From: Caldifarciminota bacterium
Lineage (GTDB): Bacteria > Hydrothermota > E44-bin80
Direction: 5' to 3'
Assembly: GCA_023127905.1 (NCBI GenBank)
Contig: JAGMEZ010000565.1
Coordinates: forward strand, 1 to 16,014
DNA: 16,014 nucleotides
Shown here: in pieces, positions 485 through 16,014 of the stretch
Position numbering within the stretch: position 1 is the stretch's first letter
Layout: every line of letters starts with the position of its first letter
Translations under genes and position numbers: made by a program
Notes under the pieces: model-generated
What the model was told of the DNA's origin: nothing
The model's input: only the letters and a program-made list of their open reading frames with translations
The model's database searches: none

Positions 485-1900
485 CTACTGCTTTCTAACA
501 TATTTTTGAAACCTGCTTCTTGGTTTATCTGGAATAGTTCTTTCTAAATAGTTCTTTTCAAGCAATGGATTTAGAATTTGATAAATAAAGTTTTTTCTAT
601 CTTTAAGCTCTAAAAACTCCATCATTTCTTTTAGAGAACGCGGTTTTTCACAGTATTGTAATATTTTTGCTATCCTATCTCGCATTTCGACTTGTGGGGT
701 GACTTGTGGGGTGACTTTGGGGGTAACTCCTACTACAGGATGGGGAAGTATTAACCTAAATGTATTATTTTGTGGATTATTTATGTAATATGGAAGCTCG
801 TAACCTTCTTTTTTTAGTGCTTCTGTAGTCGTTTTTAGTCCTGTACCTTTCGACTCTGCCCATTGAAGGTCATAAAATACTGAAGCAATATTAGGATTTC
901 GAAGTTTTGAACCAGGCGTGTCAAACTCATCCGGATTCTTTAAGGAATATCCTGCATTGTAAAATTCAACTCTATCATTATAGATTATCACCTGAGCGGG
1001 ACTTGAACCAAAATAATCCTGGTGCATTAAAAGATTAGTGAGAGACTCTCTCAAAGCATTACTATGTGCATTTTCTTCTATCCTATCACCTCTTACATCG
1101 CTCTGGAAAGGTATGAGGAAAAACCTTTCCATAAAGTCCAATGCGATTGAACGTATAGTTATAAGATTTCCCTTTAAATCTCTTGAAAGAAAGGGATCTT
1201 TATCCTTTCCCCATTCAATTCCTTTTATTCTAATTATATCAAGCCGTATTGCTGGAAAATATTTTCTTATTGCTTGTTCCTTACCAAAAAGGAGCAATCC
1301 TGCAGCTGTTAATTTTACAGTATTCTCAACAAGAAGACTATAAGACTTTAAAAGATATTTATCGTTAAATTCCAGTTCTGGGGTATCAACCTTGATTAAC
1401 TTTCTTAGTGAACGATAGGCAGATAATGTTTCAGGATTAATGTCGTCGGTTGAACTGCCATCAACAGCTTGAGCATCAGGTGCTCCCATTCTTTCAAGAT
1501 AATAATGATGGACATCTTGGTCAGTAAGCCTTAAATCTGTTGCACCGACCCTTTTAAATCCGCCTTTAATAGGACCAGCATCCTTTATATAAATCGGTTT
1601 TTGATACTTAGGGGCTTCTTTAACCACAATTGCAATAATAGGTTTTCCCCTATCACTTTCTATGTCAGCATTTACCAAAGGGCAGAAATTGAATTTTTGA
1701 CCGACTGTTGATGTAAAATCATCAAGTAATTGCGAAGGATTCTTGAGTCCAACAGGCACATATTTATCATTCATTTTTTCATAACCCAGTAGAATCATTC
1801 CTCCACCCTCATTTGAGAAAGAAGAAACGGTTTCCCAAAGAGACTTTGATAAACTCGATTTACATAATTTATACTCTACTCTACTTGTTTCGTATTTCAT
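485..1900 (-). CDS. AlbA_2 (Schlafen-type) DNA-binding putative transcriptional regulator with GHKL-like region
   Basis: The 471-residue protein has the layout of the RNA/DNA-binding AlbA_2 regulators. Residues 1-135 form the AlbA_2 domain (VEYK near the start, SSFSNEGGGMILLGY, then GFKRVGATD). About 280-395 is the HATPase_c_4-like region, with RESLTNLLMHQDY matching the E-N-H box and AESKGTGLKTTTEAL the glycine box. A VTPKVTPQVTPQV linker follows, then a winged helix at about 405-471. Such proteins often sit inside type I restriction-modification loci, as here, 36 nt after hsdM and presumably cotranscribed; a regulatory role is inferred. The only in-frame ATG is 1900. It lacks a Shine-Dalgarno motif at normal distance (GGAG lies about 22 nt upstream), so translation may depend on hsdM, or an unusual upstream codon may be used. 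No damage is seen in the coding frame. Confidence 0.85.
   Translation of the reverse strand: MKYETSRVEYKLCKSSLSKSLWETVSSFSNEGGGMILLGYEKMNDKYVPVGLKNPSQLLDDFTSTVGQKFNFCPLVNADIESDRGKPIIAIVVKEAPKYQKPIYIKDAGPIKGGFKRVGATDLRLTDQDVHHYYLERMGAPDAQAVDGSSTDDINPETLSAYRSLRKLIKVDTPELEFNDKYLLKSYSLLVENTVKLTAAGLLLFGKEQAIRKYFPAIRLDIIRIKGIEWGKDKDPFLSRDLKGNLITIRSIALDFMERFFLIPFQSDVRGDRIEENAHSNALRESLTNLLMHQDYFGSSPAQVIIYNDRVEFYNAGYSLKNPDEFDTPGSKLRNPNIASVFYDLQWAESKGTGLKTTTEALKKEGYELPYYINNPQNNTFRLILPHPVVGVTPKVTPQVTPQVEMRDRIAKILQYCEKPRSLKEMMEFLELKDRKNFIYQILNPLLEKNYLERTIPDKPRSRFQKYVRKQ
691..726 (-). repeat. 12-bp tandem repeat encoding the VTPQ linker
   Basis: CTTGTGGGGTGA occurs twice in tandem (691-702, 703-714), followed by a diverged third unit CTTTGGGGGTAA (715-726). 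On the coding strand this gives the VTPK/VTPQ/VTPQ linker between the ATPase-like region and the winged helix of the AlbA_2 protein. The unit length is a multiple of three, so gain or loss of units would change linker length without shifting the frame. Confidence 0.8.
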
Positions 1901-1936
1901 CTTTTTTTCTTTTATGATATTATCTCCATATCTTCC

Positions 1937-3697
1937 CTAATATTTCAATTCTTCCAGATAATTAGCAAGTTTTTTTGTGGTCTTGTCAATCTCTTTTTCA
2001 AGCCCGTCAAGCTCTTTCCATTCCTTTGCAATATCTATCTCCTCAATTTTTTCTTCCGGGAATACGTAGAGGGTAACATTGAGGTTGTAATCGTTCTCCT
2101 CTATTTCTTCACGTTCTACTATTCTTGAAAAACCTTTATCCTCTTTCGACTTCTTATATGCTCGAACTATCCTGTTTTGATTGTCATCATTCAGATAATT
2201 CAATTTTCGTACTTCAGGATGTTGTGCATACTCCTGACTTGCATTTATGAAAAGTACCCTGTCTTTTCTCCTTCTTTGCTTATTTTTATTAAAAATCAGA
2301 ATTGCCCCAGGTGCCCCTGTATTGTAAAAGAGTTTCTCTGGAAGAAGAATGATTGTTTCTATGAGGTCGTCCCTCAGAACTTCTGTCCGTATTGCTTTTT
2401 CTTTACCCCCTCTAAAGAGGCATCCATTATCAATAACTACGCCAATCCTTCCCGTATCATTCTTTGCAGAGGCGAGCATATGCTGAATCCAGACCCAATC
2501 CGCACTTTGCTTTGTGCTGGGACCATACCTGAATCTTTCTTTCCAGAACTCTCCTTTTTTAATGACCTCCTCATTGTATCCATCCTGATTCCACGGCGGA
2601 TTGGCAATAACCATATCAAACATCTTCACTCCTTCACCTTTTTTAAACTTTGGATAAAGAAGTGTATCACCAAAAGTTAAAAGTGCATTTCTGATGCCAT
2701 GGATATAGAGGTTCATCTTTGCCATCGCAAGGGTTTTGGGGTTTACTTCCTGTCCGAGGAGAAAGAGTTTATCTGCTCCTTTTGTACCATACTTGTCTTC
2801 AACATGCTTGTATGACATTATAAGCATTCCTCCAGAACCTAAACTTGGATCATATACACTTTCCTGGGGTTTCGGGTCGAGCATCTTAACAATAAGTTTA
2901 ATAACCTCTCTTGGAGTGTAAACTTCCCCCTCTTTCGCTTTCTGTGGTGCGAAATATCTCAGAATCCACTCATATGCATCACCAAGAATGTCAGGGGATA
3001 CATTGTGAAGCTTTTTCATACTAAAGAGTTCAACAAGTTGTCTCAGAATCTCCGCATTTTCACTGCTTGTTGTAAATTGGACAAAATCTATATTCTCAAA
3101 TACATCCTTTAATTCGGGATTTCGCTCAGCAATTACCTTCATTGCTTTAGAAAAATTCTCAGGCAATTTACCAGGAACTTTCCTTATATTTTCCCATAGA
3201 AATTTCTCTGGAATATCAAAATCATGATACGTTGAAGCCTTCGCTTCCTGTTTTGCTTCCTTCTTGTTAAATCCATCCTCAAGAGCGTCTTGATATGATT
3301 CTTCAAAATCCTTTTCCCACTTGTCACTTATTCTCTTGTAAAAAAGAAGAATAAGAATGAATGTGTAATCAACCCTTGTTCGGATTAAATCCGCTGCTTT
3401 TTTGAGAAGCCCTTCAAGGTCCCTGCGTGTCAGTTTATTTTTATCAATCTTAAGCATTTGGGATATAATTTCTTTTTTACTCTTTAATCTATAGATTCGC
3501 TTTCTCGCATCATCCTCGTCAAAATCTGCTTTAAGCATTTCTGCTTTTCTCAATTCAGAAAGAATTACATTTACCTGTTTCTTATCATCATTAAGGGCAA
3601 CTTTTAATGCTTTTTGTGCATCAACAAACTTGAAAGGTTTATCCTTAAACTCCTTCCATAAAGCTGTATATCGTTTTTCTATCCATTTCTTAACCAT
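1937..3697 (-). CDS. hsdM: Type I restriction-modification DNA adenine methyltransferase subunit (HsdM)
   Basis: An N6-adenine DNA methyltransferase, the modification subunit that works with an HsdS specificity protein. The start at 3697 (MVKKWIEKRY) is chosen because AAGGAG lies 6-7 nt upstream; an in-frame ATG at 3712 contains that Shine-Dalgarno within its own first codons. The 586 residues begin with a winged-helix-like segment (about 1-65), then an HsdM N-terminal helical domain (about 85-240), then the Rossmann methyltransferase domain. The SAM-binding motif DPSLGSGG starts at Asp283 and the catalytic NPPW is at 366-369, both intact. A charged coiled tail ends the protein. The length is in the usual range for HsdM. 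No hsdS or hsdR is in the window; they may lie beyond the left edge. A promoter and a dyad are visible upstream. Confidence 0.92.
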   Translation of the reverse strand: MVKKWIEKRYTALWKEFKDKPFKFVDAQKALKVALNDDKKQVNVILSELRKAEMLKADFDEDDARKRIYRLKSKKEIISQMLKIDKNKLTRRDLEGLLKKAADLIRTRVDYTFILILLFYKRISDKWEKDFEESYQDALEDGFNKKEAKQEAKASTYHDFDIPEKFLWENIRKVPGKLPENFSKAMKVIAERNPELKDVFENIDFVQFTTSSENAEILRQLVELFSMKKLHNVSPDILGDAYEWILRYFAPQKAKEGEVYTPREVIKLIVKMLDPKPQESVYDPSLGSGGMLIMSYKHVEDKYGTKGADKLFLLGQEVNPKTLAMAKMNLYIHGIRNALLTFGDTLLYPKFKKGEGVKMFDMVIANPPWNQDGYNEEVIKKGEFWKERFRYGPSTKQSADWVWIQHMLASAKNDTGRIGVVIDNGCLFRGGKEKAIRTEVLRDDLIETIILLPEKLFYNTGAPGAILIFNKNKQRRRKDRVLFINASQEYAQHPEVRKLNYLNDDNQNRIVRAYKKSKEDKGFSRIVEREEIEENDYNLNVTLYVFPEEKIEEIDIAKEWKELDGLEKEIDKTTKKLANYLEELKY

Positions 3698-3718
3698 ATG
3701 TATCTCCTTCAAAATATT

Positions 3719-3788: not shown

Positions 3789-3918
3789 GAGGAAAATGGA
3801 TTTAGGGGGAGAAAAAAGTTGAAATTGTGTTGCGATTTTGAGAATGGCTTACCTGCGCTTCCAAGCCTTACATACTGTAAAAATTTCTCATACTCAAGAT
3901 ATATCTCTCTCCCCTTAA
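3785..3918 (-). other. Gene-free stretch with a startless open frame
   Basis: The 328-nt gap between hsdM and the small secreted gene holds the hsdM promoter and leader, the hairpin at 3922-3952 and this open frame. From about 3918 to a TGA at 3785-3787 the minus strand reads a protein-like peptide including EKFLQYVRLGSAGKPFSKSQ, but there is no ATG, GTG or TTG in frame, and a TAA sits just upstream. It may be a gene remnant or a repeated intergenic element. I do not recognise it. Confidence 0.25.
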
Positions 3919-4025: not shown

Positions 4026-4751
4026 TTAATCAGTGAAAATGAGATTCCACGTGTATGTTCCACCTGCAGAGAGATACCCTGTTGTTGGACCCCATTCATA
4101 ATCTGTATATGGGGCATACCCATAAAGAAGTATTGAACCGGCACTAACACCGGTTACCCAACCTACATTACCGGAGTACAAAATTCCTCTGTCATAACCT
4201 TCAACATAGACTCGAATATAATAGGGCGTATCATTATTGATGATAACCGTTCCTGCTCCAGCTCTTTGCGAAGAAGCTGCCTCATATTCTTTTGCCTTTT
4301 TTCTGAGATCGGATGCTACTTTCTTATCACCCAACCCAAACGTTGCATCTTCATATACGTCAGCAATCTTCATAGCAAGCTTTGCATTTTTTTGCTCCCC
4401 TGCGAGTTCAACAGTTTCTTTCAGCAGTGCTTCACCTGTAATAACAGAACTTTTCTTTCCCGAATCCTTCTCTGCATAAAGCATTAACAATGCAGCGGCT
4501 ATCAGAGTATTACCATCTTTGTGGTCCCTTCCCTTATCTATCATCTCTCCAATATCAGCAAGATAATGATATTCCGCACCTAAGTCACCCATTATATTTT
4601 TGTACTTCAATGATTCAATGGGTTTTTCCATTGCCTTCCCGCTCACGGATTTCTCTTCTCCTTTATTCTCCGCAAAAGAGAAGGTGGTAAATGCAAGGAA
4701 CGAAACCGTTAAAACGAGCAGGGTAACCAGAAGAATCTTTCCCTTTTTCAT
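4026..4751 (-). CDS. Small secreted protein, helical then beta-rich; unknown function
   Basis: The 241-residue product starts at 4751 because GGAG lies 5 nt upstream; a possible ATG at 4775 would give a poorer start and push the signal peptide inward. Residues 1-27 are a signal peptide (MKKGKILLVTLLVLTVSF, cleavage near FSFA). About 45-155 is predicted helical, Ala/Lys/Glu-rich and TPR-like in spacing but not a clear TPR. The last 75 residues (from TVIINNDTPYYIRVYV) alternate aromatic and small residues with many Gly and Tyr, ending TYTWNLIFTD, which suggests a compact beta-sandwich. It is the last gene of the exported block, 135 nt after the second CHAT gene. A substrate, inhibitor or binding partner of the CHAT proteases is a possible role, on context only. 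Confidence 0.75.
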   Translation of the reverse strand: MKKGKILLVTLLVLTVSFLAFTTFSFAENKGEEKSVSGKAMEKPIESLKYKNIMGDLGAEYHYLADIGEMIDKGRDHKDGNTLIAAALLMLYAEKDSGKKSSVITGEALLKETVELAGEQKNAKLAMKIADVYEDATFGLGDKKVASDLRKKAKEYEAASSQRAGAGTVIINNDTPYYIRVYVEGYDRGILYSGNVGWVTGVSAGSILLYGYAPYTDYEWGPTTGYLSAGGTYTWNLIFTD

Positions 4752-4794
4752 GCTTTCTCCTTTCCTTCTTAGCATCAGTACAGAAAAGATGCAG

Positions 4795-4845
4795 TTAATT
4801 GTCGATTAGCTTCTTCCTGTAAGAAGAAACTTTTCTTGAACTCAT
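4795..4845 (-). other. 16-codon leader ORF with a 12-nt anti-SD match
   Basis: The complement of 4844-4855 reads AAAGGAGGTGAT, a 12-nt match to the classical anti-Shine-Dalgarno sequence at the 16S rRNA 3' end. An ATG at 4845 overlaps its end and opens MSSRKVSSYRKKLIDN, then TAA. GGAGG-to-ATG spacing is only 2 nt, too short for good initiation. The site may therefore be a ribosome standby site or a relic start for the secreted gene 43 nt further on. A CTTCTT/AAGAAG 6-bp stem (4810-4826) lies within it. Confidence 0.3.
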
Positions 4846-4886
4846 CACCTCCTTTCTGTTGAATTCTGTTTAAACATAACAACTTA

Positions 4887-7721
4887 CTATTCCCAATCAC
4901 CGAAAAGAACAAATGGTGCCCAGAAGCGTGGTGATGGATAATCTGATTCCTTTATCATATATCGCTGAGCTTCGCAGATAGATTTCGCCTTATCACCTTT
5001 TTTCATTTCTTTATAAAACCGCTCCATCAGGAGGACAGCTGGAGCATCTCCCACATGCCAGAGTGATGCGATAATAGAAGGTGTTCCAGCAAAAATAAAT
5101 GCCCTGGTTAAACCAACAAGATCGTCCCCTGAAGAGAACTCCTTTCCAGGAATATAACTTCCAATTTTCCCCGTTTCGCAGGCACTTAAAGTAACAAGAT
5201 AACAGGAAAGGTCAAGTCCAAATATCTCGCTGACTGTCAGGCTCCCATCATCATTCTTAGATGAGGATAAAAGAATCCTTGATAGAAGGGGATTTTCTCT
5301 GTTCAGCTCACCATGTGTTGCCAAATGGATAATATCATATTTACGAGCAACCTCTTTTAATTTACTCTCAGTTGCTTCCACGTCTGTATATACCTTTATT
5401 CCAGGAAGAAGTCTTTGAGAACGCAACTTTTCTACTTCTTCAATCGTTCCATCCAGATTCCCCCAACCAGGATAATCAGAAAAATCTGATTTGGCAAATA
5501 GGAGGGATCTCTTTTTCCTTCTCTTATTCTTATCATGCGCAATTTTCAGAATGGATGATGATGGCGAATAGAAAAGGTCATACTGTTCAATAAAAAAGGT
5601 TTGCGGATCCTTATTAATAAGCAATGCATTAAAAGGAAGATGGTGAAGCACCCCATGTGGCACAATACAAACCCTCTCCTTACCCTTTAATTCTTCTTCC
5701 ACAACCATTATAAGTTTTTCATACAACTTGTACGCAAGTGATTCCCATCCTTCAAGACTATAAATATATTTTCTGAGCCAATCAACGTCTTCATATAACT
5801 CTTCTGGTGAATAGTCGAGTTTCTGCGCGCTCACATTCCTCTCATCAATTGCAAAAAGAAATACACCTTTATGACAGAGAAAGTATTCGAGAATAATTGT
5901 CTTATTATCCAACATCCTCTGCAAACCTTTGAGATCAATCGGTTCAACTACCTTCAGCGAATGGTACTCGGAATACTTATTCTTCAGTTCTTTAAGAATA
6001 CGCTGGTGTTCAACAAATGCTTCCATTTTCTGTTCCTGGTCTGTAAGTAGTTCAACCTTTCGAGAAAAAACCTTTTCTTCCTGTATTAGATCCCTAACGT
6101 CGTCTGGTAATTTTTTTATTTTTATTGTTTTTTGTCCTATTATATCAAGAAGCGCTCGTGCCTTCGCCCTCTCGATATATAAAAATGCCTCCTCAATCCT
6201 CCCATTTTCAAGAAGAATTTCAATCAATTCTTCATAAATTCTAATTTTATCCTCAATGAAAGAGGATTTAAATTCCTGAGTTACAAGCTCTCCCCGTATG
6301 TTCTCAACAATACTTATTGCCTTTTCTAAAACCTCGACACTTTCCTGTATTTTATCTGCATTTCTATATGCAATACCAAGACTCGCAAGGGATGTCGCCT
6401 TGAGTTCTGGAAGATTGAGTTCGCCTATTAAGGAGATTGCTTTTTCATAACTGCGTATCGCCTCTGTATACTCCTTCTCTATCATATAAATGTTGCCGAC
6501 ATTACTGTATGCCTTTGCCTGACCGATAGTATTTTTCAATTCACTATATACCTTGAGCGCCTCATTGTATAGAGAAAGTGCTTCATCAATTTTCCCCAGT
6601 CTCTGATATACCAGCCCCTTATTGTTTAATCCATTTGCTTCTTCAACCTCTTTGTTCTTCCTTTTGAAGATCTCTATGCTCTTCTCAAAATAAGTTAAAG
6701 CAGAATCACTGTATTCTTTCTTATTTTCGCTCAACTCGAAGTAAGAATTCCCAATATTTTCCATTGCAATCGCTATACCAACGGTATCTTTTCTAATTTC
6801 GTATAATTCTTTGATTTCCTTCAGATAATCAAGTGCTTTATTATATTTTCCGATTTCTTGATAAACAAGGGCTAAGGTATTCAGTATCTCTGCTTCCCCC
6901 TTGAACAATCCTCCTTCCCGAAGGTTCTTAAAATGCTTCAATGCTTTATCGAGTAAAAGAATTGCTTCTCCATAATGCCCCTGTTTTCTCTCAACAGCAC
7001 CTAATTTCCCGAGATTATCCGCCACACCCTTTCTGTTTCCCATTACCTCAAAGATCTCTTTTGAGGTTTCATAATGCTTTTTTGCGCTATCATACTCGCT
7101 CATTCTGTGATATATATTTCCAATATTATGGAGAACATCTGCTTCTCCCCTTAGATATTCAATCTCTCTCGCCAACTCATATGCCTTCCCATAGTAAAAA
7201 ACTGCAGAATCCAAATCTATACTAACTTCAAACAGGTGTCCTATATTCCCAAGCAGTGCTACTTCATCCTTTCTATCTTCAATCTCGTTATAGCCCGATG
7301 CTTTCAATATAATCAATGATTTCCTGTAGTAACTCATTGCTTCAACATATAAATTTTCCTCCTCAGAGACTATCCCGAGATTATTGAAAATTTTTACCTC
7401 TCCTCTTTTATCACCAACTTCCTTAAATATATTAAGAGCATCTTTGTAGTATACCTTTGCTTTCTTCAAATCACCACACAATAGCTCTATATTCCCAAGA
7501 CCTTTCAGCGCACAAGCCTTCAATTCCTTCAGATTTTCAACCTCAGCATCCTTAAGAATCTTTGTGTATAAATGGAAAGATTCCTCGAATTGTTCTATCT
7601 CAAGGAGTGAATCTGCCATATTAAGGTTCTTTTCAATTTCAGGATGGGATACAACCTGTCCTAAAAGAGATAATGAATGAAAAAAAATTAGTACGAAGAT
7701 AAGAAAAAAGCGGTTCGACAT
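4887..7721 (-). CDS. Exported TPR-CHAT cysteine protease (944 aa)
   Basis: CHAT domains are caspase/separase-like (clan CD) cysteine peptidases, usually fused to TPRs that sense or bind partners. Residues 1-22 are a signal peptide (MSNRFFLIFVLIFF, ending LLGQ), so the protein acts outside the cytoplasm. About ten kinesin-light-chain-type TPRs of roughly 40 residues cover 45-500 (repeated LxNIGxxY and ALxYYxKAL patterns). The usual CHAT linker (YIERAKARALLDIIG) and a charged coiled coil follow. The CHAT domain is about 605-944, with IVPHGVLHHLPF at 686, HLATHG giving catalytic His803 and LSACETG giving Cys848. Both catalytic residues are intact, so activity is plausible. The start overlaps the FecR gene's stop by one base (TAATG), indicating translational coupling. 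Substrate unknown. Confidence 0.9.
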   Translation of the reverse strand: MSNRFFLIFVLIFFHSLSLLGQVVSHPEIEKNLNMADSLLEIEQFEESFHLYTKILKDAEVENLKELKACALKGLGNIELLCGDLKKAKVYYKDALNIFKEVGDKRGEVKIFNNLGIVSEEENLYVEAMSYYRKSLIILKASGYNEIEDRKDEVALLGNIGHLFEVSIDLDSAVFYYGKAYELAREIEYLRGEADVLHNIGNIYHRMSEYDSAKKHYETSKEIFEVMGNRKGVADNLGKLGAVERKQGHYGEAILLLDKALKHFKNLREGGLFKGEAEILNTLALVYQEIGKYNKALDYLKEIKELYEIRKDTVGIAIAMENIGNSYFELSENKKEYSDSALTYFEKSIEIFKRKNKEVEEANGLNNKGLVYQRLGKIDEALSLYNEALKVYSELKNTIGQAKAYSNVGNIYMIEKEYTEAIRSYEKAISLIGELNLPELKATSLASLGIAYRNADKIQESVEVLEKAISIVENIRGELVTQEFKSSFIEDKIRIYEELIEILLENGRIEEAFLYIERAKARALLDIIGQKTIKIKKLPDDVRDLIQEEKVFSRKVELLTDQEQKMEAFVEHQRILKELKNKYSEYHSLKVVEPIDLKGLQRMLDNKTIILEYFLCHKGVFLFAIDERNVSAQKLDYSPEELYEDVDWLRKYIYSLEGWESLAYKLYEKLIMVVEEELKGKERVCIVPHGVLHHLPFNALLINKDPQTFFIEQYDLFYSPSSSILKIAHDKNKRRKKRSLLFAKSDFSDYPGWGNLDGTIEEVEKLRSQRLLPGIKVYTDVEATESKLKEVARKYDIIHLATHGELNRENPLLSRILLSSSKNDDGSLTVSEIFGLDLSCYLVTLSACETGKIGSYIPGKEFSSGDDLVGLTRAFIFAGTPSIIASLWHVGDAPAVLLMERFYKEMKKGDKAKSICEAQRYMIKESDYPSPRFWAPFVLFGDWE

Positions 7722-8674
7722 TAATTACCTTTTGTCAATTCCTCGTATTTATCAAGTTCCCGATTACTCATCTTTTTTAGTCCAAAATCGCTGTAAACCT
7801 CACTTAAAGAACGATGGAATTCAGGTATATCTGGAGCAAGGGCTATCAATCTATCCAACTCTGCTATCGCAAGACCAAAAAGCCTATTTTCTTTATAAAG
7901 TTCACTCAGGAGAAGGTGGGTTGTGATCTCATCGGGAGAGTTTTCACATATAGCTATCTTTTCATTTTCCACTATCTGAGCTTTCGCCTCGGATAACACC
8001 TTAAAGCGAACAATTCTCGACGCTAATACCTTCTCTTCTTTTTGCGCTTCTACCTTCATAACATATGATTTTTCACGCTCTAAAGATTGCCAGTCTACCG
8101 GGTACTCAATCGCAGTATCGCTGAGTGTTATAGTCCCCACAGCCACCGCCATCCTCTGTATTTTTAAACTGTATTCTTTTGTCTCGCTTACAGACGTCCA
8201 TATAAGCTGTGGTTTATCCTCAAGAATTACTGAATTTCCCGGAGAAAGAATAAATATTCCTGTTGTGTCAGGTGCTCTCACACCTTTTCTCCCCCCCAGC
8301 CTTTCTGACGCTGCTTTGAATGCGAAAAGTGGCTTGAAGTCCTCTGTTCTCTTCTCTTCGATGGCTTTATCCTTTGCTTCTTCACTTTCTACCTCCAGCC
8401 TTCCAGTCTCAATTACAATGGAAGATGACGCTCCTATCGATCTAAATTTTCCTGATGTATAAAGAATTACCAATTTCCCATCACCACCTATCTCAATCTT
8501 ATCCCCTGAGTACAGTTGAACCATTGCATCGGTCGGAAGATCTTCACCATCCCTTTCTATGTGAACAGACCCGGAAAAAGACGTAATAATTGCCACGGCT
8601 TCCTTTTCTTCCTCAGCAAAAAAGGGACTTAATAAAATTAAAAAGATTAAGCAAATAAGATATAATCCCTTCAT
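7721..8674 (-). CDS. Exported FecR-domain protein with TPR-like C-terminus
   Basis: The 317-residue product has a signal peptide (1-20, MKGLYLICLIFLILLSPFFA), then a FecR-type beta domain at about 27-95 (SFSGSVHIERDGEDL, LYSGDKIEIGGDGKLVI). A conserved-looking RKGVRAPDT turn at 129-137 leads into a beta-sandwich region (about 145-228) of fibronectin/DUF928-like pattern ending VRFKVLSEA. The last 70 residues hold a TPR pair (THLLLSELYKENRLFGLAIAELDRLI). FecR domains outside iron transport are common in periplasmic or surface scaffolds, and FecR plus CHAT-TPR neighbours recur in other bacteria, notably cyanobacteria. Here it is coupled to the following CHAT gene by a TAATG overlap, so it is probably a partner or sensor for that protease. 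AAGGAG and GAGAGGAA precede the ATG. It lacks the FecR inner-membrane helix, so a role as a sigma-factor regulator is unlikely. Confidence 0.85.
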   Translation of the reverse strand: MKGLYLICLIFLILLSPFFAEEEKEAVAIITSFSGSVHIERDGEDLPTDAMVQLYSGDKIEIGGDGKLVILYTSGKFRSIGASSSIVIETGRLEVESEEAKDKAIEEKRTEDFKPLFAFKAASERLGGRKGVRAPDTTGIFILSPGNSVILEDKPQLIWTSVSETKEYSLKIQRMAVAVGTITLSDTAIEYPVDWQSLEREKSYVMKVEAQKEEKVLASRIVRFKVLSEAKAQIVENEKIAICENSPDEITTHLLLSELYKENRLFGLAIAELDRLIALAPDIPEFHRSLSEVYSDFGLKKMSNRELDKYEELTKGN

Positions 8675-8695
8675 TTCCTCTCACTCCTTATGTTA

Positions 8696-8724
8696 TATAT
8701 ACAACAAAAAAATATGCCTGTCAA
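8696..8724 (-). promoter_or_regulatory. Putative internal promoter before the FecR-CHAT pair
   Basis: In the 87-nt gap between the large CHAT gene and the FecR gene, the minus strand has TTGACA (8724-8719), a 17-nt T-rich spacer and TATATA (8701-8696). The predicted start lies only about 15 nt before the FecR ATG, leaving just enough leader for AAGGAG. It would let FecR and the second CHAT protein be expressed apart from the upstream genes. The -10 is two bases off consensus and the region is AT-rich, so this is moderate evidence. Confidence 0.5.
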
Positions 8725-8761
8725 TAATATTTTCCTTAAAACCAAACCTGGAAAATATAAA

Positions 8762-11700
8762 CTACCTCCAGTTTCCAATCAGGATAAAAGGAGCCCAAAA
8801 ATAAGGATGTGAAAAATTTTCGCTCTTCAGCAAATCAAGCTGAGCAGATCTTAGTGCATCCAGTTTATTTTCATCCCGGTTTTTTAGTTCATGATAAAAA
8901 TTTACAACAAGCTTGCTTGTTGAAACATCATTTACCTCCCACAGCGTTGCGATGAGGGTAGGTGGTCCTGCCATTGCAAACGCCTCAGCAAGAGAAATTA
9001 ACTCAGATCCACTCCCTCCCTTACCCTCTTCAGTTGCTGTCTGGCACGCTGAGAGAAACACAAGGTCGGTTCTATCTCTGAGGGCAGTATATCCAGCCAC
9101 TTCAAGTAGCGTCAATTTCTGTTCGTTCTCCGTATCGCCTGCAAATAGAAGGTATGATTCGAGTGGGTTATTCAGGATTGTACCGTGTGTTGCAAGATGT
9201 ACAATATCATAATCCTTTGCATGTGTAAGAAATTTCTCTTTGGTTGCCTCACTGAGCGTCCAGATGAGAGCATTCTGCTTAAATATCTCATTTCTCAGTA
9301 ACTCCACTTCTTCTGAAGCAGATGGAAGACTCCCATCAGGATTACCCATACCTATCAGTTTATCAATACTTTTATCCTCTTCTCTCAAAAGGTCAGCAAA
9401 GGTTGCAGATGTTGTATATGAAACTTTCTTCAAGTTGAGAAAATATTCTTTCTTTCCCTTTTTCTCACATACAAGGGCATGGAAAGGGAGATAGTAGAGA
9501 GAGCCAAAAGGGACAATGACTATATTTTCAAATTTTTCCATCTCATCCTCTACCGGTCTCAGGAGATATTCATAGAGTTTCAATGCAGGCTCATTTAATT
9601 CCTCATCCACATTGGATAATGGATCCTTAACCACTCCAAGGTAGTATTCCACGAGACCGTTTATCTCAGACTCCGCTACATCTACTGATTTTGCAACGAA
9701 GTGGTTCTTTCCAATGCAAAAAATGTAAAGCTTATCAGATGAGATGAAATACTCGAGAAGCAGGATATTACCAGGAATATCGTTTTGAACATCCCCGAGG
9801 GTCGCAGGTTTTATGGTGAGAGCATCAAACATATTCGGGTTCTGAAATTTCAGTCTCATCATCCATTGATTGAACTCTCCCTCGGTATTTGCCAGCGTTT
9901 TACTTAATGTCATAATTTTAGTCTCGTCCTGTTCTTCAACAGGTTTTTTCTTCTCCTCTAAAAGCTGTTTCTCCAGCGCTTCTTTCTTTTTTTCAATCTT
10001 ATCAACTTCCTCAAGCGTCAACTTCAGTTCCTTATCTTCTGTCTTGGGTTTTATATCACCAAAGGCATCCTTTATTATCTTCGATTTGCTTTCCTCTATG
10101 TACTTGAAAGCCTCATCTGGTTTTCCCATCCTTATGAGTATATCGATTAACCTTTTGTATACCTCAATCTGTTTCTCCATTTCCGCGAATCCCTTTCTCA
10201 ATTTCTCACTCTTTATCTTCTTCTTTATTCCAGAAAGGGTCCCTGCCGACCTCTTGTAATACTCTACTGCCTTCTCAAAGTTGTCCATTTCTTCGTATAC
10301 CTTTCCAGCATTAAGTTCATACCGCCATTTCTCTGTCTTCACTCCTATTGCTTCTGCGATCTCTATTGCTTGAAGGTGGCATTTAAGCGCTTCCGTATAT
10401 CTCTTGAGCTCTTGATAAGTTTCCCCCATTTCATCAAGACCTTGCATTTCTGTATAGCTTGAGTTTACACTTCTCACAAGTCGCAATCCTTTTTCGTGGT
10501 ACGCAAGTGCTTCGGTATGCTTTCCCTGCCTTGAATACGCTACTCCTATATTAGAAATTGCACAACCTTCCCCCACTGTGTACTCGATTAATCGGGAGAG
10601 ATTACGGCATTTAATAAAGTACTCGAGAGCCTTTTCATATTCGCCTGTAATTTCGAGGTAAACAAGTCCAAGACTATTAAGGGCATTCGACCTATCTGTT
10701 TTACTACCTAACGCTGTGGCTGCATCGAGAAAATATTGACGATATTTTACAGCATTCAACGAATCACCCAACTCACTGTATATACTTCCAATACCACTGT
10801 ATGCATACATTTCTGTCCACCTCTGGTTCTTATCCTGTGCCACCTTTAGAGCTTTCATCTGGTATTCAAGAGCCATTGAATAGTCACCCTCATTTTCATA
10901 TGCCCATCCTATATCACTCAAAGCAGAACAGATACCGGGGAAATTCATTGTTTTCTCATGTATGCTGAGCGCCTTTTTGTAGCTACTTATCATCTCATCA
11001 AATTCCCCCAAACTACCTACAAGAAAGCCGATTGAGGAAAGCGTCCATGCTTCGTTTATAAGGTCATTATTATTATGATAGAGTATCTGCGCTTCCTTCT
11101 TATATTCGAGTGCAGTTGGATACTCTCCTATACTTTTATAATAATCACCAATGGCAGCAAGGTATTTTGCCTTTTTCACCTCATCAAAGAGTTCATCTGC
11201 TATAATTCCCGTCTTCTCATAGTACTTGAGTGCCTTTTTGTGCTGATGCAATCCGGCATAACACCATCCAATCCTTAACAATGACCACATCTCTCCAGAT
11301 TTATCACCTATCGACCTGTAAAGTTTTAGAGCCTTCTCTGCATATTCTATACCTTTCTCGTACTCAGCCCTACTATAGTAGGTTCCTGCATTATCGTATA
11401 GTTTATCTGCTTCGTTCCCCTGTCTTGCCTTGGTCACATTCAGATAGACCAGTTCGGTATCAGCTCCCATCTGTTGTGCAAGCCCAAAATCAGCAAGCGC
11501 ATCATTGAAATATTCCCAGTACAGGTCGCTCTCTCCTAATTTCAGGTATCCATCAGTATCTTTGGGGTTTAGTGAGATTGCCTTTTTCCCTTCATTGTAC
11601 AGTAACCATGCCTTCAAGTTTGGTATAGGTTGAAGCGAGTAAGCCTTCTCGAGATAGGGTTTCCCCTCATCAAATTCTCCTAATTCAGTATATGAATAAC

Positions 11701-13789
11701 CAAGATACGATAGAGCCGTAACATCATTATTCCTTTCTGCAATTACCTTCTTCAATTCCTCAATACACCGTTCATACTCACCTATATGCCAGTGAGCACG
11801 TGCAAGTCTCAGTCGTGAATTAATATCACCAGGATTATCCTCTAATTTTTGGATGGTCTCGAGTATACACTCAACGTTAACAAGGTCATTCCGTGCATCC
11901 CAGAAATCATTGTCTATTTCTATAGCTCTCTCGAAGTATTGTTTTGCTTTTTCATAGTTTCCTTTCTTTACGTAAGCCAGAGCAAGGTTGTAATTAGGCC
12001 ACTTATATTCTGTGTCTAACTCAGTTGCTTTCAGAAAATAAGCTATCTGCTTATCTATAATGCCCATCTTCTGATAGGCTAAACCAAGAATATTATACCC
12101 CCATGCAACACTCGGACTAACCTTAATCCCTTTTTCAGCCCATTCCACAGCTCTCTGATAATCCTTCTTCCCTTTATAACAATTACTAATACTTATGTAT
12201 GGGTCATACTCTTTGGGGTCAATTTCAAGAATACGTTTATACACTACAATCGCACTGTCATAGAATGCATGATCGAACATGTAGTCTGCCATATCATCCA
12301 GATTAGCTTTGACGCATTCTATATCATCTATCTTCTCACAGATACTAATCGCATTTTCCCACCGGTATTTTGCATAATCAAAATCACCTTTTCCCCAGTT
12401 CTCCCACGCCCATTCCTGTTCCTGAAGTGCCTTCTTTCTCTTTGTTGTTTTGTCTATAAGTCGACGTGCTTTCTTTGAATCTGGATCAAGTTCAAGTGCC
12501 CTCTTATATTCAGTTATTGCAGCGTCGAAGTTTTCTTCTTCATACTTTATGTTTCCGGTCATTATGTATGACTCTGCGCCCCCCCCTACAATATACTGTT
12601 TCTCTCGCGCTGAAGCGTATCTGAGCCACTTCTTTATGTTCTCATCCTTCGGTCTTATTTTCGCAAGGGATTCGAATATTTCTCGCGCCTTTGAATACAT
12701 CGACTTACCAGTATAGGAATAACCAATGTATGTATTGACCGCAACACTATCATATCCCAGCTCTTTTGCCCGATAAAACTGCTCAAGGGCTTCATCGTAT
12801 TTATAAAGCTCATAGTATTCCCTCCCAAGCTCATATCTAACCATAACATCATTCGGGTCATCTTCCAGCATCTTGATATGCTTGAGCACCTTCTCCGTAA
12901 ATCTTAATCTCTCTTCAGCATAGAAATAATCAGGGAATGTAGCGAGTGCCTTCTTGAAGGATTCAATAGCATCCTGGTACTTCCCTTCGGCAACGAACAT
13001 GTCGCCTTCATCAGCATGCGGTGCTGCTTCTTCTTTTTTCCTCTCATGTTCTGCTGTAGGTGTCTCACCGGACATCCACGTTGCATATGTCGAAATGAAC
13101 TCCCAGTAATAGTTAATATATCTTGCAGGAAAGTACCTTACGTATTCTAAGTAAAGTTTTACATCTTCCTTTCTGGTTTTTTCAAAGGCTTCCCCCCAAC
13201 TCATACCATCAAATATCCCTCCCTTTATTATCCTTCCTCCACCACCCAATTCTGCAACATCAGCATGCTTGTGTACCTCTTCGACCAAAACATCAATGAT
13301 ACTGTCAATTTTTTCCTGGGATGGGTTCCTGATGAGCTCTTTCAATTCAAATATAGGCAACTTAAATTCGTAGTCAATGAATCCTATATCCCATGCTGCA
13401 ATCATACCAATATCCGTTCCTAAAACGAATACAGGAATTTCAGCGTTCAATCCACAGTAATCTCCGAACTTTACAACACCGTCAATATCCTGCAGTGTAA
13501 TGAATACACTATCCGGAGTTAGCTTCTTAATTTTACCATTTGCAAGCTGAATATCCCACTCTATTTCTGCACCACCATCACCCCTGTTGGGAAGAAAAAA
13601 GCAGAGGTGATCAACAATAAGATTATCATTCTCTCCCCTGTTGACAACAACAGTTTTCCCATCATCTAATACAGAGGTAACATGCCCGACTATCTGCTCT
13701 ACTTTTGTTTCATGTGCGGATATGATTGAATTAACAGAAAGTACTGTAAATAAACCAAGAATACACAGACTCTTTCTAAATAATTCCAT
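8762..13789 (-). CDS. Giant exported TPR-CHAT cysteine protease (1675 aa)
   Basis: The first 25 residues are a signal peptide (MELFRKSLCILGLF, ending SIISA). Residues 28-250 are a unique N-terminal region: a beta-rich part (VGHVTSVLDDGKTVVVNRG, to about 125), then a helical part with no family I recognise. TPRs of two kinds follow. Classical 34-residue repeats occupy about 255-800, with a similar block appearing twice (LEDDPND at 308, LEDNPGD at 649). Kinesin-light-chain-type repeats occupy about 805-1190. A linker (YIEESKSKIIKDAFG), a charged coiled coil (about 1250-1310) and the CHAT domain (about 1320-1675) complete it; HLATHG gives His1535 and LSACQTA gives Cys1582, both intact. GAGGAG precedes the ATG. 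It starts 19 nt after the deiminase gene and is almost certainly cotranscribed with it. It likely acts in the periplasm or at the surface; substrate unknown. Confidence 0.9.
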   Translation of the reverse strand: MELFRKSLCILGLFTVLSVNSIISAHETKVEQIVGHVTSVLDDGKTVVVNRGENDNLIVDHLCFFLPNRGDGGAEIEWDIQLANGKIKKLTPDSVFITLQDIDGVVKFGDYCGLNAEIPVFVLGTDIGMIAAWDIGFIDYEFKLPIFELKELIRNPSQEKIDSIIDVLVEEVHKHADVAELGGGGRIIKGGIFDGMSWGEAFEKTRKEDVKLYLEYVRYFPARYINYYWEFISTYATWMSGETPTAEHERKKEEAAPHADEGDMFVAEGKYQDAIESFKKALATFPDYFYAEERLRFTEKVLKHIKMLEDDPNDVMVRYELGREYYELYKYDEALEQFYRAKELGYDSVAVNTYIGYSYTGKSMYSKAREIFESLAKIRPKDENIKKWLRYASAREKQYIVGGGAESYIMTGNIKYEEENFDAAITEYKRALELDPDSKKARRLIDKTTKRKKALQEQEWAWENWGKGDFDYAKYRWENAISICEKIDDIECVKANLDDMADYMFDHAFYDSAIVVYKRILEIDPKEYDPYISISNCYKGKKDYQRAVEWAEKGIKVSPSVAWGYNILGLAYQKMGIIDKQIAYFLKATELDTEYKWPNYNLALAYVKKGNYEKAKQYFERAIEIDNDFWDARNDLVNVECILETIQKLEDNPGDINSRLRLARAHWHIGEYERCIEELKKVIAERNNDVTALSYLGYSYTELGEFDEGKPYLEKAYSLQPIPNLKAWLLYNEGKKAISLNPKDTDGYLKLGESDLYWEYFNDALADFGLAQQMGADTELVYLNVTKARQGNEADKLYDNAGTYYSRAEYEKGIEYAEKALKLYRSIGDKSGEMWSLLRIGWCYAGLHQHKKALKYYEKTGIIADELFDEVKKAKYLAAIGDYYKSIGEYPTALEYKKEAQILYHNNNDLINEAWTLSSIGFLVGSLGEFDEMISSYKKALSIHEKTMNFPGICSALSDIGWAYENEGDYSMALEYQMKALKVAQDKNQRWTEMYAYSGIGSIYSELGDSLNAVKYRQYFLDAATALGSKTDRSNALNSLGLVYLEITGEYEKALEYFIKCRNLSRLIEYTVGEGCAISNIGVAYSRQGKHTEALAYHEKGLRLVRSVNSSYTEMQGLDEMGETYQELKRYTEALKCHLQAIEIAEAIGVKTEKWRYELNAGKVYEEMDNFEKAVEYYKRSAGTLSGIKKKIKSEKLRKGFAEMEKQIEVYKRLIDILIRMGKPDEAFKYIEESKSKIIKDAFGDIKPKTEDKELKLTLEEVDKIEKKKEALEKQLLEEKKKPVEEQDETKIMTLSKTLANTEGEFNQWMMRLKFQNPNMFDALTIKPATLGDVQNDIPGNILLLEYFISSDKLYIFCIGKNHFVAKSVDVAESEINGLVEYYLGVVKDPLSNVDEELNEPALKLYEYLLRPVEDEMEKFENIVIVPFGSLYYLPFHALVCEKKGKKEYFLNLKKVSYTTSATFADLLREEDKSIDKLIGMGNPDGSLPSASEEVELLRNEIFKQNALIWTLSEATKEKFLTHAKDYDIVHLATHGTILNNPLESYLLFAGDTENEQKLTLLEVAGYTALRDRTDLVFLSACQTATEEGKGGSGSELISLAEAFAMAGPPTLIATLWEVNDVSTSKLVVNFYHELKNRDENKLDALRSAQLDLLKSENFSHPYFWAPFILIGNWR

Positions 13790-13808
13790 TTTCAGCTCCT
13801 CTCTTATA

Positions 13809-15524
13809 CTATAAAATAAGTAAAAACTTCCCTTGTTCTTCTCCTTGTTCTGTAATAATTTTATAGAAATAGACGCCCTGTGTCAATGGACGATTCTCAT
13901 CGTTTCGTAAATTCCATTCAACAAGATACTTCCCGGGCTTATACACTGCGTTTTCTAACAGTTTCACCCTTTGCCCAAGAACATTGTAAACCTCAATCCT
14001 TACACCCGTTACCTCTTGCAAGCTCAATGAGAAAATCAGATTGTTATGGGCAGGGTTTGGATAGGCTTTAAAGGTACATAGTAGTTTTCTTAAATCATTT
14101 TCAGCAACGGAAACACCAGGTCCAACAAGAAAAGCATAGATATGAGGCGGGACATTAAAAGGTGAGGTTCTTCTGATATCTTCAGTGTTTTTTGCCAACA
14201 GATAGTAGCAAACAGTGTCACCGAAAGATTGCGCAGGGATATAGCCCGCGTATACACCGGGTGTATCACCAACTGCTGAAAGTGGAGTAACATTAAATAC
14301 TGGATTGCTGTTAATTTTATAAAAGACAAGGGTTGAATCTGTAATTAAACCACCCGAAGTGATAATTTCAGCCCTTACCCTGTAAGGGTTTAACGTATCG
14401 TTTGTAGAATCTGGTAATGCATAGTGTTTGATGTGAATATATCGTCTGCTTGGAGCCTGCATTGTAATACAGTGGATAGCCCCACCTGAACCGGACATTG
14501 AGGAGCAGTCTATACCGATTATTTCGTGGTTTGGTAAGAGTTGTTCGTAGATAAATAATGCCGTGTCATCCTCCGAAAGCCCCCAGAGTGGGACAAGAAC
14601 CTTATTGTTTACCATTAATGAATTGAGATATGTAGGTGGTGCATCTGACGTTGACCATGGCATCGGTATTCTCACCACGCAATAATTATATCCTTCTCTA
14701 TTTTTGCAGCTGGCAATTGAATCCGCATTTTGATTAAGCAAATTATAATTCTGGTGTCCAGGTTCATATTCACCGACAAGAACCAGCGTGTCATTCAGAA
14801 TCTTTGTCCACAGATCAATATGTCCTGTATATTCAGTATTCATCCGCTGCAGCACAATGAACTGTTCAAGTCCACTATATTCTAACATTAAAGAATCTAT
14901 CTGCTCAGGTGTCAAAGATAGGTTCTCTTGATATATTAGTGTGCTTGCAAAACCGGTACCTAAACCGTCCACCATAAAATTACCACCAGCATGTATTAGG
15001 GGCGAACCATAAACGGGAATCGCCCAGGCATCACCTATGCGCCATGGGATTGTATCATCATCTGGTCTCCAGGATCGATTATAGATAAAGTCAACTATTC
15101 CTTCAGTGTTATCGTACTTGCGCATAAACCATGGACCATAGTCGCGGCTCCAGACGGAATTCCGTGGCCATATATAGAATTCTACCGAATCGAGCGGAAT
15201 ACCATTATTTTGCAGGTAATTTATAATATTATTCTTTTCACCATTGCTGCCAACAATTATATATGTCTTTGAAATCGCAACGACCTCACGAACAATTTCC
15301 CGGAAAATTGAGTTAAAGTAGCCATATAACCATGTAATAAAGACACCATGTAACTGTTCAAATTCACCAGGGGTTTCAACCCAGCCTCCAGGTGGTACTG
15401 TCACAATATGTCCCTTTCCAATTTCATCTACATGTAAACTCTCTTCCGGGGTCATCCACTGAGGAAGGAAATCATCTCCAGGATTTGGATTTGTTGCCAG
15501 CATTAAAACCAATAGGAATACCAT
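13809..15524 (-). CDS. Secreted peptidylarginine-deiminase-like enzyme (PPAD family) with T9SS-type sorting domain
   Basis: This family hydrolyses guanidino groups: agmatine in the cytosolic agmatine deiminases, peptidyl C-terminal arginine to citrulline in secreted PPAD of Porphyromonas. The catalytic residues are all visible: Asp128 in WSRDYGPW, His235 and Asp237 in GHIDLW, and Cys352 in GGAIHCIT. They match the PPAD set (Asp130, His236, Asp238, Cys351) almost in number. HAGGNFMVDG and an Arg-containing NRSWRPDDD loop also fit the family. About 375-470 is an Ig-like segment, and 488-571 (YPNPAHNN, VYNVLGQRV, GVYFYKI) is a type A sorting-like domain, so the overall order equals PPAD rather than the single-domain agmatine deiminase. 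AAGGAGGAG precedes the ATG, and an in-frame TAA just upstream blocks extension. The N-terminus is hydrophobic but short, without basic residues, an atypical signal peptide. Confidence 0.88.
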   Translation of the reverse strand: MVFLLVLMLATNPNPGDDFLPQWMTPEESLHVDEIGKGHIVTVPPGGWVETPGEFEQLHGVFITWLYGYFNSIFREIVREVVAISKTYIIVGSNGEKNNIINYLQNNGIPLDSVEFYIWPRNSVWSRDYGPWFMRKYDNTEGIVDFIYNRSWRPDDDTIPWRIGDAWAIPVYGSPLIHAGGNFMVDGLGTGFASTLIYQENLSLTPEQIDSLMLEYSGLEQFIVLQRMNTEYTGHIDLWTKILNDTLVLVGEYEPGHQNYNLLNQNADSIASCKNREGYNYCVVRIPMPWSTSDAPPTYLNSLMVNNKVLVPLWGLSEDDTALFIYEQLLPNHEIIGIDCSSMSGSGGAIHCITMQAPSRRYIHIKHYALPDSTNDTLNPYRVRAEIITSGGLITDSTLVFYKINSNPVFNVTPLSAVGDTPGVYAGYIPAQSFGDTVCYYLLAKNTEDIRRTSPFNVPPHIYAFLVGPGVSVAENDLRKLLCTFKAYPNPAHNNLIFSLSLQEVTGVRIEVYNVLGQRVKLLENAVYKPGKYLVEWNLRNDENRPLTQGVYFYKIITEQGEEQGKFLLIL

Positions 15525-15790: not shown

Positions 15791-16014
15791 TCATCCGTTT
15801 AATTTACCTAAGAAGCTTAATAATCCTCCACCAATATTGAACATCATATGGGCAATTATTGCAGGAATCAGGCTGTTTGTTTTTTCGCGAAAGTAACCTG
15901 CTACAACACCTAAAATAAAAGTAGAAAAAACTATTCCTGAGAACATATAAATATTCATTCCTGTTGTTAATAATCCGATATGCATTGCTGCAAAAAACAA
16001 AGCGCCTATTAAAA
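15791..16014 (-). CDS. C-terminal part of a CPBP (CAAX/bacteriocin-processing) family membrane protease
   Basis: The frame is open from the window edge to TGA at 15791, about 74 residues, and has no convincing start inside the window (only a TTG at 16000, in mid-motif), so the gene is cut by the edge. GALFFAAMHIGL matches the family's motif with a metal-binding His at the end of a membrane helix, and SLIPAIIAHMMFN matches the final His/Asn motif. Two hydrophobic helices are visible (around IYMFSGIVFSTFILGVVAGYF and the AIIAHMMF segment). The glutamate-pair motif would lie outside. CPBP proteins are multi-pass inner-membrane proteases or related factors, some linked to prenyl-protein or peptide processing. 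It is separated from the deiminase by about 266 nt with two palindromes and is probably a separate transcription unit. Confidence 0.8.
   Translation of the reverse strand, partial: LIGALFFAAMHIGLLTTGMNIYMFSGIVFSTFILGVVAGYFREKTNSLIPAIIAHMMFNIGGGLLSFLGKLNG

What the first reader, a model, noticed from the sequence alone, without database searches (positions are those of the whole stretch)
4026..15524. Exported module: PAD-like deiminase, two TPR-CHAT proteases, FecR protein and a small secreted protein
Five consecutive same-strand genes all appear to carry export signals; two encode intact CHAT protease dyads and one an intact deiminase site. CHAT proteases are best known as cytoplasmic effectors (for example Csx29 with type III-E CRISPR, or gasdermin-cleaving proteases), so a fully exported pair coupled to a FecR scaffold and a deiminase is unusual. 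In Porphyromonas, Arg-specific gingipains (clan CD) create C-terminal arginines that PPAD converts to citrulline. If these CHAT proteins cut after Arg, this block would be an independent version of that pair. The coupling is my inference.
Basis: partly seen in the sequence, partly recalled or inferred. Interest (0 to 1): 0.75.

Follow-up and report, generated by a model that had tools for sequence, protein, structure and literature searches.

The report
Exported CHAT protease module beside deiminase
In an uncultured bacterium, an exported pair of caspase-like proteases belongs to a gene module that recurs in other bacteria, while the arginine-modifying enzyme beside it looks like a relative of the gum pathogen's enzyme that lies next to the module in only a few relatives.

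Summary

(1) PAD is Porphyromonas-type: catalytic residues and the C-terminal-arginine clamp (R152, R154, Y233) are kept in the 120 best homologs of 335, many named 'agmatine deiminase'. It adjoins CHAT1 in 2 of 38 WOR-3 PAD loci examined and lies 2 kb away in a third. C25 (gingipain-family) matches occur in 147 of 147 genomes, so CHAT is not needed as partner.

(2) The conserved unit is a FecR-like protein, a TPR-CHAT (CHAT2), a small two-domain protein and a TPR/beta-barrel protein. CHAT2 orthologs occur in 9 of 147 genomes; the whole small protein in 8 of those 9 and in 0 of the other 138. CHAT1, FecR-like, CHAT2 and the barrel recur together on a contig labelled Mcinerneyibacteriota. In the window the barrel gene is lost; a 23-codon relic remains.

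The small protein's hinge holds an arginine in 45 of 45 rows, making it my best candidate substrate. Cutting after arginine is unproven: separase's arginine-reading residue is not evident in these CHATs. 'FecR' is not confirmed by Pfam, and PAD and CHATs carry different export signals.

The parts
13809..15524 (-). PAD: Porphyromonas-type peptidylarginine deiminase (catalytic domain, Ig-like domain, T9SS type A sorting tail)
   Evidence: PF04371 2.1e-46, TIGR04183 1.7e-10; P. gingivalis PPAD 4yt9 E 8.2e-60 over residues 42-465; D128 R150 R153 Y232 H235 D237 N301 C352 match PPAD D130 R152 R154 Y233 H236 D238 N297 C351
8762..13789 (-). CHAT1: large TPR-CHAT protease, N-terminal signal by eye, His/Cys H1535/C1582
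   Evidence: PF12770 6e-60 at residues 1400-1673, many TPRs; full-length relatives in G013, G066, G077 and L107, in pieces on two contigs in G015
7721..8674 (-). FecR-like protein: N-terminal beta-rich region (by eye), weak Ig-like and C-terminal TPR hits; Pfam FecR not matched
   Evidence: directly upstream of CHAT2 in 9 of 9 WOR-3 genomes with a CHAT2 ortholog
4887..7721 (-). CHAT2: TPR-CHAT protease, N-terminal signal by eye, His/Cys H803/C848
   Evidence: PF12770 2.7e-62; alignment of 8 orthologs; ortholog set of 9 genomes
4026..4775 (-). Small secreted two-domain protein (likelier start at 4751, with a better ribosome site): helical domain, hinge, beta-sandwich
   Evidence: 43 homologs; AlphaFold2 mean pLDDT 83.6; whole protein in 8 of 147 genomes, all with CHAT2
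4263..4265 (-). Codon of hinge Arg171 (Arg163 in the 241-aa form), candidate protease site
   Evidence: Arg in the hinge of 45 of 45 rows (the window's own protein is there twice); only one other stretch is as constant for Arg
3842..3910 (-). Relic of the TPR/beta-barrel gene that follows the small gene in relatives
   Evidence: 23 aa, 78% identity to the G013 barrel protein, 39.7 bits against at most 23.9 in 300 shuffles; also listed

Best explanation
Two neighbouring things. (a) A CHAT protease module of the cell envelope, here in a reduced form: FecR-like protein, CHAT2, small two-domain protein and CHAT1. In relatives it also has a TPR/beta-barrel outer-membrane-type protein and often an M48-TPR peptidase. 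Most likely the TPR-CHAT proteases are exported to the periplasm and held inactive. Their TPR arms, with the FecR-like partner and the barrel, respond to a signal in the envelope. Active CHAT2 then cuts the small protein in its hinge, at or near the constant arginine, and parts its helical domain from its beta-sandwich. (b) A PPAD-type exodeiminase, exported by the type IX system and acting on C-terminal arginines. It has become the upstream neighbour of CHAT1 in this family only and is more likely served by C25 proteases. Shown by sequence: families, intact active sites, conserved order and co-occurrence, the hinge, the relic. Inferred: location, activation, substrate, cleavage site.
For: CHAT2 orthologs stand apart in 9 of 147 genomes (626 bits or more; the next best match has 275). 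FecR-like is directly upstream in 9 of 9 (in G069 only its end remains at the contig edge). The small gene is directly downstream in the 7 where the contig continues. The whole small protein is in 8 of these 9 genomes and in 0 of the other 138. The barrel protein is full length in 7 of the 9, a relic in the window, and unseen in G015, whose contigs end first; of the other 138 only G016 and G138 have partial matches at E<=1e-20. In family f22 small, barrel and CHAT2 are confined to the same 2 of 23 genomes. L107 (labelled Mcinerneyibacteriota) has barrel, CHAT1, FecR-like and CHAT2 in a row: CHAT1 30% identical over nearly its full length (E 0.0), FecR-like E 3e-13, CHAT2 E 8e-99, barrel 32% (E 4e-80). 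Hinge Arg in 45 of 45 rows, between a helix ending at 161 and a strand starting at 166. In the Csx29 system a TPR-CHAT cuts a neighbouring gene's product in a flexible loop (PMC10028731, passages). PAD: eight key residues in 120 of 120; SprA-type matches in 145 of 147 genomes including this one; C25 in 147 of 147.
Against: No assay. The hinge Arg may be structural. The small protein has no known family and its fold matches are weak (none at E<=0.001). L107 lacks it on the 10.3 kb held, so it is not shown to be part of the cross-phylum module. FecR-like relatives also occur without a CHAT beside them (G075, G079, G081, G139). The acid that separases use to read P1 arginine is replaced in Csx29 (PMC9729208, passages), and at the counted position CHAT1 has Ser and CHAT2 Val. 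The window lacks the barrel and M48 proteins, so the module may be decaying here. For a PAD link: PAD ends 19 bp before CHAT1, and CHAT2 genomes carry PAD in 8 of 9 against 31 of 138 (p 1e-4), though not beyond their own families (p 0.24).
Confidence: 0.42

Rival explanations
1. One reading: CHAT proteases cut after Arg and the adjoining deiminase converts the new C-terminal arginines to citrulline, an independent version of the gingipain-PPAD pair.
For: PAD keeps the C-terminal-arginine clamp. PAD is 19 bp upstream of CHAT1 here and 41 bp in G015. The small protein offers a constant hinge Arg; cutting there would create a PPAD-type substrate. TPR-CHATs resemble separases, which cut after Arg (passages of PMC10028731, PMC9729208 and PMC4626109).
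Against: Adjacent in 2 of 38 PAD loci, near in 1 more; relative G014 has PAD and no CHAT was found. Only PAD has a T9SS tail. The separase Arg-reading acid is not evident at the counted position. 12 C25 matches in the same genome. The best-scoring promoter-like site on this strand (11 of 12) lies at 13886-13858, inside the end of PAD and ahead of CHAT1, though such sites are no commoner than chance here.
Confidence: 0.13
2. PAD works with C25 (gingipain-family) proteases secreted by the same type IX route; its place beside CHAT1 is a chance of gene order.
For: C25 in 147 of 147 genomes. A C25 gene lies directly upstream of PAD, same strand, 3-125 bp away, in 4 of 38 loci (G065, G094, G096, G097), and an ORF with only the C25 C-terminal domain in G093. 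In 15 of 38 loci PAD lies one or two genes from a phosphomannomutase-like gene (name recalled), so its setting varies.
Against: The three whole C25 neighbours of family f23 have lost the His that I recall as catalytic; only that of G065 keeps His and Cys. P1 preference of these C25s not tested.
Confidence: 0.55
3. The module is an outer-membrane quality-control unit: a BepA-like M48-TPR protease and CHATs that remove failed barrel proteins, with the small protein as chaperone or inhibitor rather than substrate.
For: The M48-TPR protein scores best against NCBIfam BepA (1.8e-25, though 89.6 bits against a cut-off of 570); the six barrel proteins looked at in WOR-3, and that of L107, end in Phe, as outer-membrane barrels often do (recalled).
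Against: M48 does not follow the small gene in the window, G013 or G077, and no full-length homolog was found in the window's draft genome; a dedicated barrel gene suggests a specific rather than general role.
Confidence: 0.25
4. An anti-phage or cell-suicide unit like other TPR-CHAT systems, placed beside restriction genes.
For: HsdM and AlbA/Schlafen-type genes follow downstream; PADLOC finds restriction methyltransferases there.
Against: The five genes match no PADLOC family except generic TPR models; all carry apparent export signals (by eye); no relative of the window's HsdM or AlbA protein was found in the 20 fetched loci; the restriction genes sit where the barrel gene was lost.
Confidence: 0.05

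Closest known systems
Porphyromonas gingivalis PPAD (PDB 4YT9, 5AK7)
   Same: Catalytic plus Ig-like domain over residues 42-465, T9SS tail; D130, R152, R154, Y233, H236, D238, N297, C351 all kept (roles from passages of PMC4487231 and PMC4893104)
   Different: C239 is Leu in the window and in 120 of 120 close homologs; no C25 gene next door in the window; activity untested
Gingipain R (C25) with PPAD
   Same: Both settings put a PPAD-type enzyme with a clan CD cysteine protease; C25 genes adjoin PAD in 4 of 38 WOR-3 loci
   Different: In the window the neighbour is CHAT, not C25; link not conserved; no T9SS tail detected on CHAT
Csx29 (TPR-CHAT) with Csx30, type III-E CRISPR
   Same: TPR arm plus CHAT protease, encoded with a partner that may be its substrate; sequence similarity (8d9g E 1.7e-05 with CHAT2 alone, 2.4e-14 with a profile)
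   Different: No CRISPR-associated genes recognised among the window's ORFs; apparently exported; partner unrelated; barrel and FecR-like genes instead
BepA-type M48-TPR periplasmic protease
   Same: M48 plus TPR in the modules of five relatives
   Different: Far below the curated cut-off; absent from the window

Membership tests
PPAD-type peptidylarginine deiminase | Cys-His-Asn triad and two guanidinium-binding Asp (D130, D238) | tested here: met
   window, and 35 of 38 WOR-3 loci with every residue (two truncated, one divergent); 120 of 120
PPAD-type peptidylarginine deiminase | R152, R154, Y233 that hold the C-terminal carboxylate and bar internal arginines | tested here: met
   roles from passages of PMC4487231
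PPAD-type peptidylarginine deiminase | Ig-like domain and T9SS C-terminal tail | tested here: met
PPAD-type peptidylarginine deiminase | Deiminates C-terminal peptidylarginine | not testable with these tools
   needs enzyme assay
CHAT protease | CHAT domain over Pfam cut-off with His and Cys | tested here: met
CHAT protease | Cleaves after Arg as separase does | tested here: inconclusive
   separase D2151 is K670 in Csx29 (PMC9729208, passages); counted position is Ser in CHAT1 and Val in CHAT2; an Asp four residues after the Trp is shared with separase
Csx29 / Craspase | Linked to Cas7-11 and Csx30, Csx29 model over cut-off | tested here: not met
   CHAT2 56.3 bits against cut-off 300; no Cas family among the 7 window proteins scanned
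FecR | Pfam FecR domain | tested here: not met
   no hit at E<1 in the window protein or five relatives
Gingipain-PPAD pair | Conserved linkage or shared export of an Arg protease and PAD | tested here: not met
   CHAT adjacent in 2 of 38 PAD loci; T9SS tail on PAD only
BepA | Curated BepA score | tested here: not met
   a relative's M48-TPR protein: 89.6 bits against 570

The most novel reading that the evidence does not exclude
An exported, caspase-like proteolytic signalling system of the bacterial envelope, found in more than one phylum: a TPR/beta-barrel sensor, a FecR-like scaffold and paired TPR-CHAT proteases, in WOR-3 with a dedicated two-domain substrate cut at a constant hinge arginine. 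In one WOR-3 family a C-terminal-arginine deiminase has joined it and may cap the product as citrulline.
Probability: 0.2. Interest if true: 0.8.

Novelty: new variant of a known kind. Interest (0 to 1): 0.5.

Why it matters
The TPR-CHAT protease studied in most detail in the papers I saw (Csx29) works with a CRISPR effector. A recurring exported form with its own barrel protein and a candidate substrate would open envelope signalling by caspase-like proteases to test. The WOR-3 deiminases show that the PPAD architecture occurs widely in an environmental phylum. The P. gingivalis structure paper took that architecture to have arisen by fusion to new C-terminal domains and called the function unique (PMC4487231, passages). 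[quoted passage not shown] the conserved C-terminal-arginine clamp and the probable misnaming as agmatine deiminase are what is added here.

Tried and rejected
Csx29 membership: score far below cut-off. Defence system: nothing specific in PADLOC for the five genes. PAD-C25 pairing as strong support for an Arg-protease/PAD unit: beside PAD in 4 of 38 loci, but the three f23 proteins lack the His. CHAT/PAD co-occurrence as support: weak over the phylum (p 0.07), and the CHAT2/PAD signal vanishes within families. Reading P1 preference from the separase residue: the PDB alignments reach only part of the separase site, so inconclusive. 'FecR next to exported CHAT everywhere': of nine proteins of 305-339 aa next to distant CHATs that I scanned, none matched Pfam FecR, one is ankyrin, one PLP-dependent; a blast link to the window's FecR-like protein was seen in 4 of 79 loci, L099, L107, L109 and L121. 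A single-sequence model of the small protein was poor and was replaced. Paper searches for CHAT with FecR, periplasm or outer membrane and for WOR-3 with type IX secretion listed no paper that I recognised as describing such a module; preprints and most subscription papers were not searchable. A draft had given the Csx29 E-value wrongly; it is 1.7e-05.
Full report
What is there. The window is a whole 16,014-base contig of a draft genome (2.88 Mb, 668 contigs, 89% complete). Names of relatives suggest candidate division WOR-3; the nearest named relative is filed as Cloacimonadota. Five minus-strand genes, in order of transcription, are PAD, CHAT1, a FecR-like protein, CHAT2 and a small secreted protein. 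Gaps are 19, 87, -1 and 111 bp. No terminator-like site of the simple scan lies in those gaps. A strong promoter-like site (11 of 12) lies at 13886-13858, inside the end of PAD and ahead of CHAT1, but promoter-like sites as a whole (50) are no more than shuffles give (45). Whether the five are one operon is open. These two CHAT matches are the only ones found in the genome.

Deiminase. The best solved relative is P. gingivalis PPAD, E 8.2e-60, along catalytic and Ig-like domains. Papers on PPAD name D130, H236, D238, N297 and C351 as catalytic, and R152, R154 and Y233 as holding the C-terminal carboxylate (PMC4487231 and PMC4893104, passages). For agmatine deiminase the first paper lists equivalents of the catalytic residues and W217, not of R152, R154 or Y233. 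The window has all eight. Of 38 WOR-3 loci examined, 35 have all eight; two are truncated and one (G133) is divergent. One further genome with a match, G090, was not fetched. In the 120 best of 335 homologs every one has all eight, and position 239, Cys in PPAD, is Leu in all 120. Changing C239 to Ala or Ser left about 8% activity in PPAD, so the Leu is a caution. Many of the names given by sources are agmatine deiminase. SprA-type translocon matches occur in 145 of 147 genomes, including this one, in line with the T9SS tail.

Where PAD sits. Of 38 PAD loci, CHAT1 is directly downstream in G000 and G015, and 2.0 kb downstream in G013, all one family. In the fourth member of that family, G014, PAD is present and no CHAT was found. 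In 15 loci PAD lies one or two genes from a phosphomannomutase-like gene (name recalled from its sequence, not tested). In 4 loci a C25 gene is directly upstream, and in G093 an ORF with only the C25 C-terminal domain. Some contigs end close to PAD, so these are lower bounds. C25 matches occur in all 147 genomes; in this one 12 of 15 candidates were scored and 12 matches listed. The three whole C25 neighbours in family f23 lack the His, while that of G065 keeps His and Cys.

The conserved module. CHAT2 orthologs stand apart in nine genomes of three families: G000, G013, G015, G066, G067, G068, G069, G074 and G077, at 626 bits or more against 275 for the next. A FecR-like gene is directly upstream in all nine. 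The small gene is directly downstream in the seven where the contig continues; in G077 it lies on another contig, 188 bp ahead of the barrel gene. The whole small protein is present in eight of the nine and in none of the other 138 genomes; its beta domain alone is seen in G072, G076 and G081. An M48-TPR peptidase gene follows the small gene in five of eight. A TPR/beta-barrel protein is full length in seven of the nine, and among the other 138 only G016 and G138 have partial matches at E<=1e-20. Large TPR-CHATs follow in G066-G069 and G074 (in G067 cut by the contig end), and in G066 the last one is the CHAT1 ortholog. FecR-like relatives also occur without CHAT beside them, in G075, G079, G081 and G139, so that protein is not exclusive to the module. 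L107, labelled Mcinerneyibacteriota, has barrel, CHAT1, FecR-like and CHAT2 in a row on 10.3 kb, without PAD or small protein there. So CHAT1, FecR-like and CHAT2 look like the older part of the window's order, and PAD the later neighbour.

A relic. Between the small gene and HsdM, bases 3842-3910 on the minus strand read as 23 residues that are 78% identical to the barrel protein of G013. They score 39.7 bits; the best of 300 shuffles scored 23.9. No full-length barrel or M48-TPR homolog was found elsewhere in this draft genome, only TPR-level matches. The window's module is thus a reduced copy.

The small protein. The protein search gave 43 homologs; the organism names given were WOR-3 or Cloacimonadota. 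With 43 aligned sequences AlphaFold2 gives a helical domain to residue 161 and a beta-sandwich from 166 (241-residue numbering; mean pLDDT 83.6). The hinge holds an Arg in 45 of 45 rows, the window's own protein being there twice, and only one other stretch of the protein is as constant for Arg. Fold matches to solved structures are weak. By analogy with Csx29, which cuts Csx30 in a flexible loop (PMC10028731, passages), I propose it as substrate. This is inference.

Would CHAT cut after arginine? Separases do (PMC4626109, passages). One structural paper states that separase D2151, which reads P1 Arg, is replaced by K670 in Csx29, whose catalytic Cys is C627 (PMC9729208, passages). Counting 43 residues from the Cys of the Csx29 sequence printed reaches a Lys eight residues after a conserved Trp. 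At that place CHAT1 has Ser and CHAT2 Val. An Asp four residues after the Trp is shared with separase, so the pocket could still be acidic. Verdict: inconclusive.

Location. By eye, CHAT1, CHAT2, the FecR-like and the small protein have Sec signals; no T9SS tail was detected on them, while PAD has one. So the CHATs are more likely periplasmic and PAD extracellular or on the surface. This is a further point against direct coupling.

Verdict. The genes are real, the reading of active sites is right, the linkage of PAD to CHAT is local, and the more interesting object is the exported CHAT module with its hinge protein. It is a new variant of a known kind.

Noticed in passing
window 3842-3910 (-): 23-codon relic of the TPR/beta-barrel gene that relatives keep downstream of the small gene; the restriction gene HsdM now follows it.
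   Followed up: yes
window 485-3712 (-): HsdM-like methyltransferase and a Schlafen AlbA_2/HATPase/Fic-like C-terminal protein, apparently a separate restriction or defence cassette; no other restriction gene was recognised among the window proteins scanned.
   Followed up: partly
WOR-3 phylum, 147 genomes: C25 (gingipain-family) matches in 147 of 147 and SprA-type translocon matches in 145 of 147 genomes, so type IX secretion appears general in this phylum.
   Followed up: partly
L201, L203, L204: C25-family proteins directly upstream of PAD that keep the Cys region but have lost the His, perhaps non-catalytic partners.
   Followed up: partly
L107 235-10346: Contig labelled Mcinerneyibacteriota with barrel, CHAT1 (with a lipoprotein-like signal by eye), FecR-like and CHAT2 in a row.
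   Followed up: yes
G076:C1:2019443-2019904, G081:C21:16456-16692, G072:C277:2664-2843: The beta domain of the small protein recurs alone, twice in a row in G076, without the helical domain.
   Followed up: no
window about 15792-16014 (-): C-terminal end of a membrane protein resembling the CPBP family (by eye, not searched) just upstream of PAD.
   Followed up: no
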